Source of the DNA: Fomitopsis serialis
Lineage: Eukaryota > Basidiomycota > Agaricomycetes > Polyporales > Fomitopsidaceae
DNA: 64,000 bases
NCBI RefSeq assembly: GCF_022376445.1
Contig: NW_025955028.1
Span: forward strand, 124,001-188,000
Direction: 5' to 3'
Positions 4,927 to 63,120 of this stretch are shown piece by piece. Below the pieces are notes generated by a model. The model had not been told where the DNA came from, ran no database searches, and saw only the letters and a list, made by a program, of their open reading frames with translations. Position 1 is the first letter of the stretch. Each line of letters opens with the position of its first letter. Both the position numbers and the translations under genes were made by a program.

Positions 4927-5298
4927 GGGCCACAGAGGCAGCCTCCATGCTACCTCATGCGCTTCGTTCGCTCGGGACAACACCAAATGCATACGTCGTA
5001 GCTGTGTATGCCGACGCATCTAGCGATCGCGCCGCTATGAGCTCGCGAGGGGCGCTCCGCTTCAGCTGGGCAGTGGTGCGCGCGAAGCCTTAGAGAGAGA
5101 CGAACATACCCATACTTAAGTGCGGGCACCCTCGCCTGTCTCTGGCTAACTCCAGAAAGACTTCCAGCTTCCGCCTTTTGGTTCAAATCTTCTAGTGAGT
5201 TGTGTAGCATGTCTGGGGCACTTACACATGTTGATTAAGATGGGTACAGGCCGCGTATCATTTGAACGTACATTTCTACCTTTTCACTGCTGCACAAG

Positions 5299-30857: not shown

Positions 30858-30862
30858 GTTCG
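30858..30862. repeat. 5-bp target-site duplication of LTR element, left
   Basis: GTTCG, repeated exactly at 36869-36873 directly after the right LTR. Confidence 0.9.
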
Positions 30863-31063
30863 TGTAACGGATATTCCCGTTACGGTATGTCTTACGTTAT
30901 ATGTTTGTCTTTGTTTGCTCGAGGACTCGTATGGCGCGCCAGTGCACCTACGAGTCCTCAGCCTTTACCTCGTCACCGCCTTTGTATGCAATCTGTAGAC
31001 AGTATCTCTTGAATAGAGACTGGGTGCAGCGCATACGAGGCACGACGAGTAAGGCGTCTTACA
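30863..31063 (+). repeat. 5' LTR (201 bp)
   Basis: TGTAACGG...CTTACA, identical by eye to the copy at 36668-36868. It includes an inverted repeat around GAGGACTCGTA/TACGAGTCCTC. Confidence 0.92.
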
Positions 31064-31188
31064 CTTTTTTGCGCTCCAGAAAAAGCTTCTATCTCTGGGG
31101 ACTATCTACTCTAGGCAACAAACTCTCGAACTCTCGAAATTCTATGCTCTATAACAACCTCTAGTCGACCCAGCAACACCTCAGCAAG

Positions 31189-33894
31189 ATGTCTGAGTCG
31201 ACACCCAACCCCTCCGAAGCAACCCGGAGCAGTCGCGGATCCCGTAGCGGAACCCGCAGCAAGCTCAAGGTGTTGCGCGCGGAGATCAAGTCCAAGCTCG
31301 CCGCGAGCCAAGAGCAGCTCGAGCAAACACTCGCCGAAGCCGCGGCGAGTCAGCAGCGGATTAATGCTGCGCTCGAGGAGTCCAAGCAGACCCGCAAGGA
31401 TCTGATGGACGCCGTCGACGAGGCACTGTCGGCAGCGAGCAGCAGTCGCAGCCGCTCATCGCGTGCGCAGACCGCTCGGACTGAGTCCCCCGACCAGGAG
31501 AACTCAGCCGGAGCACCCACAGAGCAGGCGCCGTCCGACCGTGAGGTCGAACCCGCACTGAGCACTGAACAGCCCGAGCCCACCAGTGGGCCTGCTCAGA
31601 GCCACCCGGAAACACTATCCCGGGCAGCTCCAGCCCAAGCAGCGAAGCCGGGCACCCTCCCGAAGGATGGTGCACGCGCCGAGTTCGACGACAGGCCTGT
31701 CGCCGAGCTCGAACCCGAACTGAGCGAGCGGTGCGTCGAGTCGACGCATCTCCAGGTTCGGGAGGGTATAGGCACACAGTACTACAGTAGTACTGTGTGC
31801 AGTGGGAACGAGCCCACGCGTGTAGATACGCTCGTCGCGTGTTCAGAGATGAGCTGCGACACAAAAAATATATATTCGTTGTCGAATGACGTGCGCGCCA
31901 TGTCGAGCAACTTGCTCGACGCGACGCGCGACGCGCTCGACCCTACGGGCGTCGAGCGTCACGGGTCCGTGGCGAGCGCCCTGAGTGCTAGCGCTCGCCG
32001 CACTGCACTCGACCGCCACCACCGACTCCACGTCCTCGACCACTCCCACTCTCTGGGCAGCCACCTCGAGCGCCCGTCCGGCGGACCAGACGCGCGCGCG
32101 GCCCCAACGCGAGTGCGAACTCGCGTTCGCGAATGGCTGGCTGACTTACCGCCAGTCCAGTCAGTGGCGACCGACGACCTGGTACCTCCCGGTACCAGAT
32201 CGTCAATTCCTTCCCCCCCGGCTCCTCACCTCACCCCTCTCGGCTCGCGCATTGACTCTGGCGATCGATACCGCGGCTCTGGCGACACGCAACCCAGCCG
32301 CGCGACCCAGGGCTTGAACACCGCGCACTCAAGCCCAGCGCCGAGCTGCAAGACCGAGCGGACCACGAGGAACGCGGATCGTGGAGGCGGCGAGGAAATC
32401 CCGAAGAAACGAGAAGGGTGCGAGGAAGGCACGAAGGGAGAGAGGGAGGAAGGGTGCGGGGCGAGCAGGGAAAGCGAGCAGGAAGGCTCACAAGTCGAAG
32501 GTACGCCCATGCTGGACGTACCCTCCTCGCCTCCGCCTGTGCCAGTACCCCCGCCAGCGTGCGTATCGACGAACACGGAGTTCGTCGAGCGTACCGCTGG
32601 CCACGGAACCAGGTACGACTGCGAAGTCGTATCTTCCTCTCCGCAAAATAGCACGTCTGTGCTGCGGTACGACCTCCAGGTCGTACCTGGACCTTCCACA
32701 TTGCAAAGCGACACGGCGGACGCGCAATACCGCACGTCCGACGTGTCCCATTGTTCCGCAACCGGATGTCGAGTAACGGGTACGCCCCAAATGGACGCAC
32801 CCGCATCGATACCTCACTTCTCGCCCGTGTCCGCACCAGCAAGCATAGCGACGAACATGAAGTTCGCCGTATGCGTTGCTGGCCAGGAAGACGGCAGGCT
32901 CGCCCTGCAGGACGACCTAATGGTCGTCCCTTCCGCTCTGCAAGAGAGCACACCTGCGCTAGGGGACGACCTCGCGGTCATACCATCCATACCCCCTGTA
33001 CCCGCGCCAGTAGGCGTATCGACGAACTCAAGACTTGTCGTGCGCACTACTGGCCATGACTATGGCACTCCCGCCCTCAGGTACGACTGCGAAGTCGTAC
33101 CGGATGTCCCACGGGCGCTGCGGTACGACCCTGAGGTCGTACCAGGACCCTTCACTCTGCAAGGCGATACGACGGACGCGCAACTTTGCACGTCCGACGT
33201 ACCCCACCACACCACGATCGCGCTGCGCAACGACCTAATGGTCGTGCCTCCCACACTGCACGGCGGCGCACTTGTGCTAGGGGATGACCTCGCGGTCGTA
33301 CCCTTCAATTCGCAAAGTGGCACGATGGACACGCAGCAATGCTTGTCCAACGTGTCCCACTCAACCTCGTCTGCATGTGGCGCGATGTATGCGCCTCAAG
33401 ACGGCCTGCACGTCCTTGCGGAAGTGCAGACCTCCGACTGCCCCGGCACAGCGGAACCTCTTTTGGTTCAGCCAGCCAAGCCGTGGAACGTCCCGGACGA
33501 TCTCTCCCGTGACGCGCTCGACTCCGCAAGGCTTTTGGAAAGCCGACCGACGCGTATGGCCTCTCTGCGAGAGGCTCGGACCGTCCCTTGGCGAGCACAA
33601 GCAGCTCAAGTCCGCGCAGCTGAACCGCTCGCGGTTCAACTGGCAGAACCTCCGTACGGCCTCGCCTTCGATTTGAACCTATCCAGCAGCCACCAACCGC
33701 GCGCGACCGTCTTTCAAGAGGAATTGCACTTCCCACAGGAAGTGCAAGCCCCCGGCTTCTCCAAGACAACTGAACCTTTCGCGGCTCAGCTAGGAAGCCC
33801 GCGATACGACCTCGACCGGCGCGACGACGCGGCGGACCTCGACCTCGACTTGTTAAGTGACCACCACCCCTTCGCGACCCTGGCGCCCCGGTGA
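31189..33894 (+). CDS. LTR-element ORF1, coiled-coil N-terminus, repetitive unknown protein
   Basis: 901 residues from the ATG at 31189 (context AGCAAGATG). Residues about 25-85 form a heptad-like Leu/Ala/Glu/Lys coiled coil (SKLKVLRAEIKSKLAASQEQ onward), the kind of segment that could multimerise as a Gag protein does. The rest is Pro/Thr/Ser/Val-rich with recurrent DDLxVVP and RYDxEVVP units. Those units coincide with DNA hairpins such as 32666-32687, 33080-33101 and 33122-33143. No zinc knuckle, protease or polymerase motif is visible. The frame is fully open despite the heavy palindrome content, which suggests selection or recent origin. A structural role in particle assembly is speculation. 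Confidence 0.55.
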   Translation: MSESTPNPSEATRSSRGSRSGTRSKLKVLRAEIKSKLAASQEQLEQTLAEAAASQQRINAALEESKQTRKDLMDAVDEALSAASSSRSRSSRAQTARTESPDQENSAGAPTEQAPSDREVEPALSTEQPEPTSGPAQSHPETLSRAAPAQAAKPGTLPKDGARAEFDDRPVAELEPELSERCVESTHLQVREGIGTQYYSSTVCSGNEPTRVDTLVACSEMSCDTKNIYSLSNDVRAMSSNLLDATRDALDPTGVERHGSVASALSASARRTALDRHHRLHVLDHSHSLGSHLERPSGGPDARAAPTRVRTRVREWLADLPPVQSVATDDLVPPGTRSSIPSPPAPHLTPLGSRIDSGDRYRGSGDTQPSRATQGLNTAHSSPAPSCKTERTTRNADRGGGEEIPKKREGCEEGTKGEREEGCGASRESEQEGSQVEGTPMLDVPSSPPPVPVPPPACVSTNTEFVERTAGHGTRYDCEVVSSSPQNSTSVLRYDLQVVPGPSTLQSDTADAQYRTSDVSHCSATGCRVTGTPQMDAPASIPHFSPVSAPASIATNMKFAVCVAGQEDGRLALQDDLMVVPSALQESTPALGDDLAVIPSIPPVPAPVGVSTNSRLVVRTTGHDYGTPALRYDCEVVPDVPRALRYDPEVVPGPFTLQGDTTDAQLCTSDVPHHTTIALRNDLMVVPPTLHGGALVLGDDLAVVPFNSQSGTMDTQQCLSNVSHSTSSACGAMYAPQDGLHVLAEVQTSDCPGTAEPLLVQPAKPWNVPDDLSRDALDSARLLESRPTRMASLREARTVPWRAQAAQVRAAEPLAVQLAEPPYGLAFDLNLSSSHQPRATVFQEELHFPQEVQAPGFSKTTEPFAAQLGSPRYDLDRRDDAADLDLDLLSDHHPFATLAPR

Positions 33895-36437
33895 GCGCGC
33901 AGATCGACGCTGGCGTAGTCCCAACGGACGCGCGAGCCCGAGATCGCGACCATATTGCTGCACTACCGACAGCGCAGCAGCCGGCGCTTACGGACTCCGA
34001 CCGACCAGAACGGTCGCTCGACCGTCAAACCGGCGAGAACTTTACAGTTCTCGCCGATGGCTCAATCCTAGGGACCCCCAGCCAACATATTGTCGACCTC
34101 TCCGCGCGCCCCAACACCGCTGGAGCCTACGACGGGCACAACGAGCTCCAGGTCGAATACGCACTCGGGAGGTCGCGCGAAGGGTGGAAGGACGGGCAAG
34201 GCAGGGACGGAGAAGACGTGGACGAGGGTGTGAAAGCAGGAGAGTCCGACGGGGATGGTCAGGCAGAAGGAGGAGAAGGGGAAGGGTGCGGTGTACGCGA
34301 AGGAGTCGAGCATTCAGGCTCGAAAGGCGCAGGTACGTCATTATTGGACGTACCCCTTTCATGGGTACCACCACTCCCTATCCCGAGGTCACCACCCGGG
34401 ATGACTACGACAACCAGTGCGGTTGTCGTGGCCGTCACTGCGTACGGCAGTGGTACGGTCAGTCCACGAGGTGACCTACAGGTCGCGTCCAGCACGCATG
34501 TACAGCGCACGCACGACGCACAGAGGTCGAGCCCAATGCTCGAGGAACACACTACTGAGCGCACCGGCGACCCGAAGCGCGAGTACCAGGCGGTACTCGC
34601 TTCACGTCCATCGACACCCGTTTCCGTACCACTGCCCGTGCCGATCGCGACCACCTCAAAGGTCGTCGCAATCGACAGTGGTCCATCCACACCACAGAGC
34701 GACATCGTAGTCGTGTCAGTGGCCACGCACGGCGGCCTCCATGCCGGGGATCGCGTGCAATCAACCAAGACGCCTACAGCTGCAGACGTACGACAGGTCG
34801 CACCCGAGACCGGATGGCGACCATCGGGACTATACATGCCGCCTGCACGACGCGTCCACGGCCAACAAGACCGATGTGAGCCAGCTACGGTCGACGGCGA
34901 TGTGAGCCAGGCCAAGTACCTCGCGGTACTTGACATCTCTAGCGAGCGAAGTCAGGATCCACCGCGGAGCACGTCCAAGATGGACGTGCTGCCGTCTTCC
35001 CCGGACCCAGCGCAGTCAAATGAAGGAACGGGGACTGACGAGGTCACGTCGGTGGTTCCAGGGCAAGGGAAACTTGGCGAGGACGACTCCTCGTCCTCGC
35101 GGGTACAATTACCTGGACCGTATAGTGTGGCAGGCACATCCAGCTTACCGGGTGATGCACCCGCATCGAATGACGCGACGACCAGGGCGTCGTCGCGCGC
35201 CCATAAGAAGGAACATCCACCGCGAGGGCTGGATTCATCGGACTCAGGTGAACGGCGACGTTCAACGACTACCGGTGGTATCGAGACCGAGCCGGCGCGA
35301 GCGCAGACCTCCTCTACGAGGGGGGGTACTCTCTTGAGAGGGGAAGGGAGCGGGGCCTCGAACGGCCGCCGCTCGTTCCACAACACAACCAGTACATCAC
35401 ACGAAGATGTACTGGCCTCGGACCCGGCAGCGACACGGACGCCAAGCCGTGAGATTGACGTACGGGCCACCCACGGGAATTCGACGCGAATGCCAGCTAC
35501 TCGCACATCGAGTAGTCAGCGCGATGTGCAGGATACGGCGCGAGTGGCCAGTACATCATACAATGGTGTATTGGGACCAGATGTAGTCTCGGGCCGTACG
35601 TCCAGCGTAGTGCTCGACGTACGAGCTTCACATCGGACATCAAGACGCGTACCACCGGTACCACGCGCATCGAGTGATCGACTCGAAGTGCAGGATACGG
35701 GTGACCGTCGCAGCCACGACATCACTCGGGAAGCCAGTACCTCGCGCCGCGAAGTACTGGAACTGAACCGAGTGTCGACCGCACTGGATTTTTCAGTAAC
35801 CGTTGATGTGAGTCGATGGCCGAGTGACAAGAGGTCGCGCGAGGAATGCTTCAGCCTCCTTGCAGACCAACTTGACCACGATTTCGACGAGGCCGATGTC
35901 GCGGCGAGTGACGGCGAGTGGGCCATTTGGGCTCACTGTAAGAGGTCTGCACTTAGCTGTGGGCAGGCCCTCGAGGAGATGTCCCCGCGACCGGGGACAT
36001 ACTCTCGTGCAGCTCGTCGAGCATGGGACCACTTCCAGAGGGAGTTGGAAGTGGTCCCTCTCGAGTTTGACCCCTTGCTCGTTGCGCCACTACCTAAGGA
36101 GGTAGTGCGTCGATGGGTCTACAACAAGCTGGGCTGGCTTGTGGTACCGCCTTGTCAACCAGTGGATGACTCCGATTGGTACATCTCCTCCGATGAGGAG
36201 CTTCCTATCACAACTCGTGAGGAGTACCCTGACCATACTGAGTCAGAGTACTTCTCCGAGTCCGAGCACCATAGCTTGCGGGACTCACGAAGTCCAGAGT
36301 CTGAGGAGACAAACTCAGTAGTAGTCTCCGACTACTACGAGCAGTCTGAGATGGAGGATACCCAAACTTTTTCTGCACTATCTGCCGAAGATGAGGATAA
36401 CTCTGAAGATGCTGACTACTACTCCGAGTCCGAGTAG
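33891..36437 (+). CDS. LTR-element ORF2, acidic C-terminus, unknown protein
   Basis: 848 codons open in the -1 frame relative to ORF1. The two frames are both open from about 33861 to 33894, and the frame first offers GTG at 33891 rather than an ATG, so translation by frameshift or reinitiation would be needed. The first two thirds are low-complexity Ser/Thr/Arg/Asp. Residues around 650-770 look globular (WAIWAHCKRSALSCGQALEE and RRWVYNKLGWLVVPPC). The end is strongly acidic with Ser/Glu/Tyr runs. Short hairpins recur throughout (for example 34031-34056, 34579-34600, 35389-35415, 36025-36058). A one-base indel splitting a single 1750-codon ORF is an alternative. No homology recognised. Confidence 0.5.
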   Translation: MSAQIDAGVVPTDARARDRDHIAALPTAQQPALTDSDRPERSLDRQTGENFTVLADGSILGTPSQHIVDLSARPNTAGAYDGHNELQVEYALGRSREGWKDGQGRDGEDVDEGVKAGESDGDGQAEGGEGEGCGVREGVEHSGSKGAGTSLLDVPLSWVPPLPIPRSPPGMTTTTSAVVVAVTAYGSGTVSPRGDLQVASSTHVQRTHDAQRSSPMLEEHTTERTGDPKREYQAVLASRPSTPVSVPLPVPIATTSKVVAIDSGPSTPQSDIVVVSVATHGGLHAGDRVQSTKTPTAADVRQVAPETGWRPSGLYMPPARRVHGQQDRCEPATVDGDVSQAKYLAVLDISSERSQDPPRSTSKMDVLPSSPDPAQSNEGTGTDEVTSVVPGQGKLGEDDSSSSRVQLPGPYSVAGTSSLPGDAPASNDATTRASSRAHKKEHPPRGLDSSDSGERRRSTTTGGIETEPARAQTSSTRGGTLLRGEGSGASNGRRSFHNTTSTSHEDVLASDPAATRTPSREIDVRATHGNSTRMPATRTSSSQRDVQDTARVASTSYNGVLGPDVVSGRTSSVVLDVRASHRTSRRVPPVPRASSDRLEVQDTGDRRSHDITREASTSRREVLELNRVSTALDFSVTVDVSRWPSDKRSREECFSLLADQLDHDFDEADVAASDGEWAIWAHCKRSALSCGQALEEMSPRPGTYSRAARRAWDHFQRELEVVPLEFDPLLVAPLPKEVVRRWVYNKLGWLVVPPCQPVDDSDWYISSDEELPITTREEYPDHTESEYFSESEHHSLRDSRSPESEETNSVVVSDYYEQSEMEDTQTFSALSAEDEDNSEDADYYSESE

Positions 36438-36658
36438 TAGTCTACCTTCTGGCCTGCATAACTCTGTCGAGTTATGTACGACAATGATGAATGGTTGTGT
36501 CTGCTCACTGACACGATCTAGCATGTTGTTGTCTACAGTTCAACATCATCCTTGTTTGCCAATTGCTACCACCGTTGGGTTGTTGCATATATTTCCTTTC
36601 TTTTTCCTTTTTCTATCTGTTTCTCTGGTTATCGCTGGGACCCGTGGTCGTGTCCAGT

Positions 36659-36667
36659 GGGGGAGGG
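36659..36667 (+). other. polypurine tract
   Basis: GGGGGAGGG immediately upstream of the right LTR, the expected plus-strand primer site of a retroelement. Confidence 0.75.
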
Positions 36668-36868
36668 TGTAACGGATATTCCCGTTACGGTATGTCTTAC
36701 GTTATATGTTTGTCTTTGTTTGCTCGAGGACTCGTATGGCGCGCCAGTGCACCTACGAGTCCTCAGCCTTTACCTCGTCACCGCCTTTGTATGCAATCTG
36801 TAGACAGTATCTCTTGAATAGAGACTGGGTGCAGCGCATACGAGGCACGACGAGTAAGGCGTCTTACA
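36668..36868 (+). repeat. 3' LTR (201 bp)
   Basis: Identical by eye to the 5' LTR, implying a recent insertion. Confidence 0.92.
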
Positions 36869-36873
36869 GTTCG
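36869..36873. repeat. 5-bp target-site duplication of LTR element, right
   Basis: GTTCG, matching 30858-30862. Confidence 0.9.
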
Positions 36874-59462: not shown

Positions 59463-59653
59463 TCAGCTGTCTCATGGATGACCATGGTACAGCCGACGTG
59501 CAGTCTCGTGGAATGGGATGGGATGGGCCGACCTCGGCCGACCGCAACTGTCTCATGGAAGGTGATTGAGTCGGCCGAGCACAAGGCGGGCAAGGCGGCA
59601 CAAGGCGGGCAAGGCGGTGCGTGGGATGATTGGCTGACCCAGACATTCTCGCC

Positions 59654-60045
59654 CAGCCGACCATTCTGTCTCACCCAAGATGATGCGCTATCCGACTCTC
59701 GGCTGGAGAAAATCTGTAACTGATCACCGTCTTGATTCAGCCGACTGTCTTGTCTCGCCCAAGACGATGCACTATCCGACTCTCGGCTGGAAAAGCTTTG
59801 CAGCCGACCACCGTCTTGATCCAGCCGACCTTCTCGTCTCACCCAAGACGATGCACTATCCGACTCTCGGCTGGAGAAAATCTGTAGCCGACCACCATCT
59901 TGATTCAGCCAACGGTCTTGTCTCACCGAAGACGATGCACTATCCGACCATCGGTTGGAGAAGGCTTGCAGCCGACCACTGTCTGGATTCAGCTGACCGT
60001 CTTGTCTCACCCAAGACAATGCATGAGCCGAGCATCAGCTGAGGT
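59654..60045. repeat. 84-bp minisatellite, about 4.6 copies
   Basis: Units start CAGCCGAC at 59654, 59738, 59822, 59906 (CAGCCAAC) and 59990 (CAGCTGAC), exactly 84 bp apart, with 85-95 percent identity by eye. Because 84 is a multiple of three, both strands stay open as 28-residue repeats; I do not regard these as genes. Confidence 0.92.
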
Positions 60046-60090
60046 ATCTTTCCTGGCCGATATCCATCTTGACTCAGCCGACCGTCTTGG

Positions 60091-60150
60091 ACCTTCTTGA
60101 CCTTCTTGACCTTCTTGACCTTCTTACTCACTAAGACCTTCTTGACCCAA
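60091..60150. repeat. 9-bp tandem repeat TTCTTGACC
   Basis: Four direct copies followed by two degenerate ones. Confidence 0.85.
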
Positions 60151-60297
60151 GGTAACGGTTGGCTCATCTTGGTCAATACCAACATGTTAATGAGGTATCT
60201 AGGTGGGCAAACACCAATGAGGTTTCAACATGGAAAGTGTCAAGGAGGATATCAAGATGGCGAGCATATTGAAGAAGCCTTCTTGGAGGTGTCAAGA

Positions 60298-60505
60298 CGG
60301 ACAAGTGAAGACAGACAAATTAAAACGAACAAGTTAAGACGGACAAGTTAAGACGGACAAGTTAAGGCGGACAAGTTAAGGCGGACAAGTTAAGACGGAC
60401 ATTGTCAAGACGGACATTGTCAAGACGGACATTGTCAAGACGGACATCTCAAGACGGACAAGTTGAGATGGACATCTCAAGACGGACATCTCAAGACGGA
60501 GAGCT
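60298..60505. repeat. 14-18 bp tandem repeat based on AAGACGGACA
   Basis: About a dozen copies that change along the array: AGTTAAGACGGACA, then TTGTCAAGACGGACA, then TCTCAAGACGGACA. Confidence 0.88.
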
Positions 60506-61719: not shown

Positions 61720-63120
61720 AGGTCAGCGAGTGCGTGAGATGGTGGGCAAACAAGACAGCAGGCAATGAGAACGGCCAATGTACAAGACGGCGGGTGAGCA
61801 GAACAGCAAGTCGGGCCATGTGCAATATGGTGCGCGAGACAGTAGGATAGGAGAGACGAGTAGGACACTGGTTGTAATATGGTAGATAGGCGGGTAGATA
61901 GGCAACGCGGTGGACAAAACCGTGACAGGATTTGGGTGAGATGGTAAGTAGGCGAGATGGCGAGCAGGTAAGACGGTAGGCCAGCGAGATCGGCGACAGA
62001 CAGGCGGAAACGGGCGGATGAGAGCCTCCCGGGGTAGCGAGAATGTTGAGCAAGGGTGTATGCACGGAGTGGGGATGTAGAGAGGACGAGGCCGGGGGTG
62101 TGTCGCACGATTGTGTGAGGAAGGGTGGAGGGCGACAGGCAGGGGTATTCAAGTTTACCGTGGTCAGCCCTTCTCATTTCTCCTCTCTGTCGACCTCCCT
62201 GCTCCTCTCCTTGCGGTGACTCGTCCTTGCGTTAGTCGGGGCCTCCTTGGGGTGCCTTGAAGCACGCATTGACATGTCGTACGAGGCGCGGGCTCACGGA
62301 CGAGCGAGCGATCATGTGGACGAGCGAGTGATCGTGTGGACGAGCGAGCGATCGTGTGGACAATCGGGTTGATGAGTGGGCTGAGCAGAGGAGAGCGCGG
62401 GCGACAGTGGAGAGCGTGGGCGAGAGGGTGTAGGCGGGGCGTGGGCGAGAGGGCGCGAGCAAGAGCGCACGGGCGAGAGGAACGAGGAGCGCGTGGGCGA
62501 GATGGCACATGGGCAAAACGGCACCGCGGGTGAGACGACGGGCGGGTGAGACGACAGGCAGGTGAGACGACAGGCGGGTGAGACGACAGGCGGGTGAGAC
62601 GATGGGCAAGATGACGGGCGAGATGCAGGCGAGCAAGACGGCCGGCAGGCAGCAGGAGTACAATATCAAGAGCAAGCGAGACGGCGGGCGAGACACGGAG
62701 GTGGGACAGAGAGATGCCGAGCCTATGAATCGGTGGGCCTGCGAGACGGTGGGCCTGCGAGACGGTGGGCCTGCGAGACGGGTGGGCGAGACGGTGGGCG
62801 TGTGAGACGGGCGTGCGAGACGGTGGGCGTGCGAGACGGTGGGCGTGCGAGATGGTGGGCGTGCGAGACGGCGGGGGTGTGTGATGGGGATAGCGTGACG
62901 AGACGGAGGGCAAGGGCTTGTAAGACGGCAGGCTCGTAAGACGGCAGGCACGTAAGACGGCGGGCGTGCAAGACGGCGGGCGTGTAAGGCGGCAGGTAAG
63001 ACGGTAGACAGGCAAGACGGCGTGCGAGCAGGACAGCAGGTGTGCAATTACACAGGGGATGCAGGCAAGACGGTATGCGCGCAAGACGGCGGGTGACATG
63101 GTGGACAGGCAACCTGGTGA
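61720..63120. repeat. degenerate satellite of GCGAGACGGTGGGC-type units
   Basis: A 1.4 kb array of imperfect 12-16 bp units around GAGACGGYGGGC, best conserved at 62730-62880. It produces long spurious open frames rich in Arg, Leu, Pro and His on the minus strand, which I rejected as genes. Confidence 0.85.

What the first reader, a model, noticed from the sequence alone, without database searches (positions are those of the whole stretch)
31189..36437. Retroelement ORFs packed with dozens of short near-perfect hairpins
The two long ORFs of the LTR element contain many short inverted repeats with loops of 1-11 nt. I counted more than twenty by eye. Examples: a 13-bp stem with 3-nt loop at 31772-31800; 10-bp stem with 2-nt loop at 32666-32687; 9-bp stems at 31902-31920, 32106-32127, 33080-33101 and 33122-33143; 10-bp stems at 33724-33747 and 34031-34056; 8-10 bp stems at 34579-34600, 35389-35415 and 35979-36000; a 12-bp stem at 36025-36058. 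Stem sequences differ from site to site, so this is not one repeat copied, yet the frames stay open. In the protein they appear as RYDxEVVP or DDLxVVP units. Ordinary fungal genes in this window do not show this. Possible explanations are a structured packaged RNA, hairpin insertion by an unknown mechanism, or compensatory selection on RNA folding.
Basis: seen in the sequence. Interest (0 to 1): 0.88.

Follow-up and report, generated by a model that had tools for sequence, protein, structure and literature searches.

The report
Hairpin-studded non-autonomous fungal LTR retrotransposon
A young jumping element in a wood-rotting fungus carries about thirty short self-complementary hairpins inside its reading frame, and evolution protects the hairpins more than most of the protein; what they are for is not yet known.

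Summary
The element (30863-36868; identical 201-bp LTRs, 5-bp TSD) has 32 perfect stems of 8-14 bp, against 16 in the other 58 kb. It is a young, multi-copy, gag-pol-less LTR family in Fomitopsis serialis; 10 of 19 other copies examined keep one frame of 1,517-1,865 aa, while the window copy is split into 901 + 848 aa. No Pfam match. Stems diverge about half as fast as the rest, equally at all three codon positions; loops do not. 59 of 671 pairs show two or more Watson-Crick types, against 11-23 in slid controls. Best reading: purifying selection on self-complementarity of the element's nucleic acid. The signal looks strand-blind: G.T is no better tolerated than A.C, and GNRA loops and their complement are equally enriched. 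That argues against a plain sense-RNA fold and leaves room for a DNA-level role. Template switching gets weak support. A degenerate locus joins this element to a gypsy pol and hints at a helper.

The parts
30858..30862 (.). target-site duplication GTTCG (left)
   Evidence: read; repeated at 36869-36873
30863..31063 (+). 5' LTR, 201 bp, TG...CA; holds a 7-bp hairpin at its start (30864-30883) and an 11-bp inverted repeat with 17-nt spacer (30921-30959)
   Evidence: direct repeat 100% identical; hairpins read
31064..31188 (+). 5' leader; CTTTTTTGCGCTCCAG follows the LTR here and in most sister copies; no canonical TGG primer-binding site seen
   Evidence: CACTTTTTTGCGCTCCAG found 37 times in the genome with up to 2 mismatches, 34 of them exact
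31189..33894 (+). ORF1, 901 aa, N-terminal half of the family's long frame; coiled-coil-like start, otherwise probably disordered (judged by eye)
   Evidence: no Pfam match; relatives in F. serialis and Rhodofomes roseus
31732..33747 (+). 15 of ORF1's 16 hairpins (stems >=8 bp), e.g. 31772-31800 (14 bp), 31902-31920, 32106-32127, 32666-32687, 33080-33101, 33122-33143, 33724-33747; the other one at 31329-31350
   Evidence: one search list; conservation and covariation
32542..33307 (+). cluster of locally duplicated 62-95-nt units (60-81% alike), several carrying hairpins
   Evidence: families D2-D4
33891..36437 (+). ORF2, 848 aa, C-terminal half of the family's frame; well conserved at its end (about 35778-36434)
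34031..36442 (+). 15 hairpins in and at the end of ORF2, e.g. 34031-34056 (11 bp), 34579-34600, 34968-34990, 35077-35100, 35389-35415, 35979-36000, 36025-36058 (13 bp), 36414-36442 (11 bp, spans the stop)
   Evidence: one search list
36457..36476 (+). hairpin in the 3' untranslated part (8 bp, 4-nt loop)
   Evidence: compensated pairs in sister copies
36657..36667 (+). polypurine tract GTGGGGGAGGG next to the 3' LTR
   Evidence: read; the 26-base PPT/LTR junction found 44 times in the genome with up to 3 mismatches, 35 of them exact
36668..36868 (+). 3' LTR, identical to the 5' LTR
36869..36873 (.). target-site duplication GTTCG (right)
   Evidence: read

Best explanation
This is a young member of a non-autonomous LTR retrotransposon family (a large gag-pol-less element with one long ORF of unknown function) in the polypore Fomitopsis serialis. 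About 30 short, exact Watson-Crick hairpins per 6-kb copy are kept by purifying selection on self-complementarity: arms are protected and sometimes change in concert, while loops and much of the encoded protein drift. Shown: the elements, the excess of hairpins, the arm-specific constraint at all codon positions, the compensation, the lack of excess in host DNA of the window, and a junction with a gypsy pol at a related locus. Inferred: that the hairpins act in cis during replication by a gypsy helper (packaging, reverse transcription, or protection of RNA or cDNA), and that the selected molecule need not be sense RNA, because the constraint looks the same for both strands.
For: 32 hairpins against 16 in the other 58 kb; 20 of 20 sequences above all codon shuffles. 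Divergence at codon positions 1/2/3: stems 0.092/0.076/0.088, loops 0.187/0.245/0.246, 15-nt flanks 0.183/0.187/0.228, rest 0.181/0.193/0.232, measured between copies other than the one that defines the hairpin. Within five groups of near-identical copies, sites that are stem in at least half of the outside copies vary at 17 of 2,377 against 395 of 25,103 non-stem sites, ratio 0.45, Fisher p 0.0005. 59 of 671 pairs show two or more Watson-Crick types against 11-23 in six slid controls. Spacer 4 is the commonest (119 of 358 stems with spacers 0-12 in 13 sequences, orthologues counted in each) and C-G closing pairs exceed G-C 64 to 24, as expected of something that folds. Distant relatives keep the excess with many different hairpins: L030 (51-53% nt identity to the close copies) 19 against 3.0 in shuffles, L032 25 against 2.1, L033 25 against 2.3. 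13 of 17 LTR pairs have no substitution and 10 of 17 show matching 5-bp flanks. L029 joins element sequence, up to about window 35962, to gypsy gag-end/pol within 2 bases, where L034 is the intact relative; the same order of protein matches is at C40 and C412.
Against: No benefit of the hairpins is shown. The mismatch spectrum in stems looks unselected: single-change states are 98 G.T, 123 A.C and 136 others, the same transition/transversion ratio (1.63) as outside stems, though the two counts are of different kinds; selection on a folded molecule should spare G.T/G.U. The intact gypsy L034 also has an excess (stems >=6: 47 against 10.1; >=7: 21 against 2.6) and low folding energies (z -5.1 to -8.0), yet its stems are hardly conserved against L029 (0.247 against 0.270; the other three settings 0.274/0.267, 0.240/0.267, 0.222/0.268), so an excess can exist without clear constraint. 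If stems are taken as the union over all copies the constraint is weaker (ratios about 0.67 and 0.71). Copies are mosaics of one another, so counts are not independent events. Hairpins are defined as perfect in at least one copy, which inflates pair counts somewhat. The helper is inferred; L034's own LTRs were not found in the stretches fetched.
Confidence: 0.55

Rival explanations
1. Mutational origin without function: template switching between inverted-repeat arms, by the helper reverse transcriptase or a DNA polymerase, creates and homogenises hairpins in each replication cycle.
For: The process is known: arm homogenisation and spacer inversion in yeast genes, and short inverted repeats in proteobacteria more conserved than their surroundings, which those authors ascribe to repeated template switching (PMC8604942, passages read); creation and maintenance of RNA hairpins (PMC8794818, abstract, outline and start of the introduction read). 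It predicts Watson-Crick-only, strand-symmetric stems, as seen here. The excess is absent from host DNA of the window and from LINE-like L038, but present to varying degree in L034 and, about two-fold, in L037 and L040. Comparisons with 3-6 single-side mismatches have them all in one arm 28 of 80 times against about 16 expected from the binomial (my arithmetic). Five hairpins show an exact 4-nt loop inversion.
Against: Two-mismatch comparisons show no one-arm excess (65 of 142). Loop inversions are not above a cross-hairpin null (5 against 2.2, p 0.07; one mismatch allowed or longer loops p 0.3-0.6; with distant copies p 0.2-0.7). Of 590 mutation clusters (8 matching bases asked), a reverse-complement source explains 14 of 230 two-base clusters against 9 complement, 5 reverse and 10 direct; 1 of 135 three-base clusters against 2, 3 and 0; and none of 225 larger ones, where the controls are also none, so power is low there. 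Unbiased arm copying should not lower the per-site rate (my reasoning), yet stems evolve at about half the rate.
Confidence: 0.22
2. Sense-strand RNA structure selected for packaging, dimerisation or stability, as in structured viral RNAs.
For: Energy far below codon shuffles, e.g. L016 z -13.3 sense; 4-nt loops and C-G closing pairs favoured; 11 of 60 4-nt loop variants are GNRA against 2.1 expected; a gag-pol-less element must be packaged in trans.
Against: No preference for G.U (in imperfect hairpins 18 G.T, 39 A.C and 55 other mismatch types at 97 sites). The complement of GNRA is as enriched (11 of 60 against 1.6). Antisense z is about the same (L016 -11.2). Loop sequences vary, unlike a coat-protein packaging loop. 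GNRA and its complement shrink to 6 and 4 distinct inner arms, against 25 for other loops.
Confidence: 0.17
3. Insertion of small hairpin elements, one per site, into the ORF.
For: Many discrete hairpins; some lie in columns where many copies have gaps.
Against: Most hairpins align gap-free across 18 copies with unrelated stem sequences; gap cells are 592 of 4,998.
Confidence: 0.03
4. By-product of a repetitive protein (RYDxVVP units) or of codon bias.
For: Some hairpins sit in such units; 62-95-nt local duplications exist.
Against: Codon shuffles that keep the protein and codon usage lose 81-95% of the hairpins (20 sequences); stems are constrained equally at codon positions 1, 2 and 3.
Confidence: 0.02

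Closest known systems
Large non-autonomous LTR elements (LARDs and gag-only or ORF-only LTR derivatives; characters recalled)
   Same: LTRs, polypurine tract, TSDs, young copies, no RT/integrase found; would need a helper
   Different: LARDs as I recall them are mostly non-coding; here intact copies have a single 1,517-1,865-aa frame and about 30 constrained hairpins
Ty3/gypsy element L034 (same genome; zinc knuckle, protease, RT, RNase H, integrase)
   Same: a relative of it forms an abutting junction with this element in L029; also hairpin-enriched, with shorter stems
   Different: full pol, different ORF, stems mostly 5-7 bp and not clearly conserved against L029
Template-switch hairpins (PMC8604942, PMC8794818)
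   Same: perfect inverted repeats, arm homogenisation, compensatory changes
   Different: there single events in host genes or RNA genes; here dozens of hairpins per 6-kb element with arm-specific constraint, and no clear excess of templated mutation clusters
Genome-scale ordered RNA structure of RNA viruses (recalled; search listing only)
   Same: excess local structure throughout coding sequence
   Different: strand-symmetric, Watson-Crick-only discrete hairpins in an LTR element

Membership tests
LTR retrotransposon | two LTRs, TG...CA, target-site duplication | tested here: met
LTR retrotransposon | polypurine tract beside the 3' LTR | tested here: met
LTR retrotransposon | primer-binding site beside the 5' LTR | tested here: inconclusive
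   conserved CTTTTTTGCGCTCCAG, no tRNA 3'-end match recognised by eye
Autonomous Ty3/gypsy | RT, RNase H, integrase, protease | tested here: not met
   ORF1 and ORF2 have no Pfam match at E<=1
LARD / non-autonomous LTR element | large internal region without gag-pol, mobilised in trans | tested here: inconclusive
   gag-pol absent; young copies; helper inferred from the junction in L029, not shown
Sense-RNA structured genome | G.U tolerated better than A.C in stems | tested here: not met
   98 against 123
Template-switch hairpins | multi-base changes explained by a nearby reverse complement | tested here: inconclusive
   14 of 230 two-base clusters against 5-10 in controls, nothing for larger ones, low power; one-arm clustering 28 of 80 against about 16
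Template-switch hairpins | spacer inversion | tested here: inconclusive
   5 exact against 2.2 expected, p 0.07
Rfam RNA family | match to a covariance model | tested here: not met
   0 matches up to E 1

The most novel reading that the evidence does not exclude
The element is written in a strand-blind palindromic code: dozens of exact hairpins selected as DNA (single-stranded cDNA or cruciforms) or in both RNA polarities, with a reading frame that over most of its length mainly has to stay open. Such a constraint on a retroelement was not found in my ten searches of the held library.
Probability: 0.3. Interest if true: 0.85.

Novelty: new variant of a known kind. Interest (0 to 1): 0.7.

Why it matters
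It is a natural system in which nucleic-acid hairpins appear to be better conserved than most of the protein of a multi-kilobase coding element, with tens of diverging copies in one genome. That makes an open question directly testable: how perfect stems arise and persist under mutation (selection, compensation or templated repair) in a retroelement. It could also show how a gag-pol-less element wins packaging or survives reverse transcription by a helper.

Tried and rejected
Protein repeats or codon usage as cause: rejected. Fixed hairpin insertion: rejected. Pfam and Rfam: nothing. Structure of the conserved C-terminal 219 aa: mean pLDDT 49, four helices, no fold search made. Loop inversion looked striking at first but failed a proper null. 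Early counts suggesting an excess of A.C over G.T, i.e. antisense folding, became a difference between 5' and 3' arms when split by pair type: single transitions fall 138 in the 3' arm and 83 in the 5' arm (my sums); unexplained. Regular spacing of hairpins: coefficient of variation 0.77-1.23 in five sequences, i.e. irregular. Whether the R. roseus protein could encode hairpins: weak test, p 0.215, 0.04 and 0.085 at three thresholds; of five known positives L030 failed all three thresholds and L010 and L032 one each, so inconclusive. Helper by shared LTR: not identified; L034's LTRs were not found in the stretches fetched. L031 matches the element only in its LTR part.

Rows dropped: L009 (448 bases at a contig end) unused; L017 and L027 (one LTR match each) left out of the alignment; 10 of 18 aligned copies used as a less redundant set and elsewhere; L029 and L031 not in the hairpin alignments; L001-L008 duplicate other stretches and were not analysed.
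Full report
WHAT IS THERE. The window belongs to Fomitopsis serialis (Polyporales): relatives of the ORFs carry that name, and their contig lengths equal those of this genome (18,488 for C616; 307,180 for C335 and 370,473 for C257); lineage. The finding lies in an LTR element at 30863-36868: 201-bp identical LTRs (TG...CA), TSD GTTCG on both sides, polypurine tract at 36657-36667. ORF1 (901 aa) and ORF2 (848 aa) overlap in different frames; neither has a Pfam match at E<=1.

FAMILY. The LTR search gave 40 scored matches (a lower bound). Of 20 stretches fetched, 19 were examined: 17 have two LTR matches (one of them with a short 5' match), 13 of these without a substitution between the LTRs, and 10 show matching 5-bp flanks. 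Ten of 19 keep one frame of 1,517-1,865 aa. ORF1 and ORF2 each match many more loci. A search of 5.8 billion proteins, in which about 7,990 candidates were scored each time, found only F. serialis with single queries (7 and 4 hits); with an alignment query 10 of 11 hits are F. serialis and one is Rhodofomes roseus, 50% identical over 60% of the query. In that record the element-like part follows about 400 other residues, so it looks like a fused gene model.

HAIRPINS ARE REAL AND NOT DUE TO PROTEIN OR COMPOSITION. See the observation check. The 18 two-LTR copies aligned have 3.99-5.33 hairpins per kb. The excess is greatest for spacers of 3-5 nt (182 against 4.0), less at 0-2 (51 against 5.6), 6-8 (85 against 4.2) and 9-12 (40 against 5.6), and about 2-fold beyond 30 nt (13 sequences, block-shuffle control). 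The commonest spacer is 4.

WHAT EVOLUTION PROTECTS. Searches agree. Stems change at about 0.4-0.55 times the rate of the rest, in all bands of divergence (0.55 above 95% identity, 0.46-0.55 below), at codon positions 1, 2 and 3 alike. Loops and flanks are close to the rest (loops slightly faster at position 2). Outside stems the three positions differ little (0.181, 0.193, 0.232), and dN/dS over the frame is 0.53-0.71 (27 of 28 comparisons of 8 intact copies; one with low dS was not printed), with better conserved ends in most windows. So the protein is probably made and loosely constrained, and the hairpins are the more constrained layer over most of the frame. Some hairpins are invariant in all close copies, e.g. 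32179-32198 (17 of 17). If stems are defined as the union over all copies the effect is weaker (about 0.127 against 0.191; in close pairs 0.0083 against 0.0118).

COMPENSATION. Of 671 pairs, 363 are invariant and 59 show two or more Watson-Crick types; controls with the 3' partner slid by 1-3 give 11-23. Hairpins are perfect in at least one copy by definition, which favours the true register somewhat. In the relatives L030, L032 and L033 (51-72% nt identity to the close copies) many hairpins lie elsewhere, while the excess stays: positions turn over, density is roughly kept (L030 is the sparsest, 20 in 8.5 kb).

WHICH STRAND, WHICH MOLECULE. Three results look strand-blind. Single-change states in stems: G.T 98, A.C 123, other 136. 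Four-nt loops: GNRA 11 and its complement 11 of 60 variants, against 2.1 and 1.6 in shuffles, reduced to 6 and 4 distinct inner arms against 25 for other loops. Energies: both strands similarly low, which follows from Watson-Crick-only stems. A sense-RNA structure should tolerate G.U and should not favour the complement of GNRA. I therefore do not adopt the packaged-RNA reading as shown, though RNA selection plus efficient repair of mismatches could mimic it.

MUTATIONAL ALTERNATIVE. Template switching between inverted-repeat arms is known to homogenise arms and invert spacers (PMC8604942: search listing and passages read; the authors also report that short inverted repeats in proteobacteria are more conserved than their surroundings and ascribe this to template switching) and to create and maintain RNA hairpins (PMC8794818: abstract, outline and start of the introduction read). 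Here one-arm clustering is mildly in excess for 3-6 mismatches (28 of 80 against about 16) but not for two (65 of 142). Loop inversions are not significant. Mutation clusters are not better explained by nearby reverse complements than by controls except marginally for two-base clusters, and the test has little power for large clusters. By my reasoning neutral arm copying would not slow stems. It may contribute but does not seem to suffice.

OTHER RETROELEMENTS. At stems >=6 (spacers 3-8) against local dinucleotide shuffles: window element 50 against 10.5; L016 59 against 10.8; L030 38 against 16.1; gypsy L034 47 against 10.1; host DNA 34 against 39.4 and 25 against 25.4; L037 17 against 8.1, L039 11 against 7.8, L040 16 against 7.6, LINE-like L038 5 against 6.7 (element types read from the translations by eye; L040 may be LINE-like too). 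At >=8 the window element has 26 against 0.8 and L034 4 against 0.6. In codon shuffles (stems >=8, spacers 0-12) L034 is unremarkable in gag-protease (1 against 0.97) and slightly high in pol (3 against 0.68, maximum 2). L034's energies are also below codon shuffles (z -5.1 and -5.2 for gag-protease, -8.0 and -6.4 for pol, sense and antisense). So a milder hairpin excess is shared by some retroelements; in L034 the stems are not clearly conserved against L029 (0.247 against 0.270 and three similar settings). This suggests that something about replication by reverse transcription is involved, and it weakens the claim of uniqueness.

HELPER. L029 (C516) is a degenerate locus: element-like sequence ends at base 2087 of the oriented locus (element base 5100, about window 35962) and gypsy sequence 71% identical to L034 starts at 2089. 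The same order of protein matches appears at C40 and C412, whose DNA I did not fetch, so neither the junction there nor independent origin is tested. An abutting junction is what copy-choice recombination in a shared particle would leave; I infer that the L034 lineage, or a relative, is a past helper.

PRINT. Ten searches of the held library gave no description of such an element; apart from the two papers named, I saw titles and starts of abstracts only, and the library lacks most subscription journals.

VERDICT. Real, unusual and testable; a new variant of non-autonomous LTR element. The function of the hairpins is inferred, not shown.

Noticed in passing
L029 (G000:C516:4500-9900, minus strand); similar order of matches at C40 and C412: Degenerate locus in which this element's sequence is joined, within 2 bases, to a gypsy gag-end/protease/RT; looks like copy-choice recombination between two packaged RNAs.
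   Followed up: partly
L034 (G000:C12:30500-38600): Intact Ty3/gypsy (1,343-aa gag-protease, 1,107-aa pol) with a 5-8-fold excess of hairpins of 6-7 bp and more over dinucleotide shuffles; its LTRs were not found in the fetched stretches.
   Followed up: partly
stems of the aligned copies: Single transitions in stems are commoner in the 3' arm (138) than in the 5' arm (83); no explanation found (my sums).
   Followed up: partly
L022 (C476) and L024 (C516): Two copies with the same flanking bases and similar frame breaks: probably one insertion duplicated with its surroundings or assembled twice.
   Followed up: no
window 59653-60500 and 62298-62996: Tandem-repeat arrays: an 84/168-bp unit, a 14-bp unit (14.6 copies) and several mostly 13-20-bp units.
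   Followed up: no
P0012, Rhodofomes roseus, residues about 400-1686: Relative of the element ORF predicted as the tail of a longer gene model; similar N-terminus and acidic tyrosine-rich C-terminus by eye, likely a fused gene model over an insertion.
   Followed up: partly
31064-31080 and sister copies; L034 and L035 near the first ORF: LTR end followed by CTTTTTTGCGCT (here) or what looks like TCTTTTTGAGCT (L034 locus) instead of a tRNA 3'-end site; possibly self-priming or another primer.
   Followed up: no
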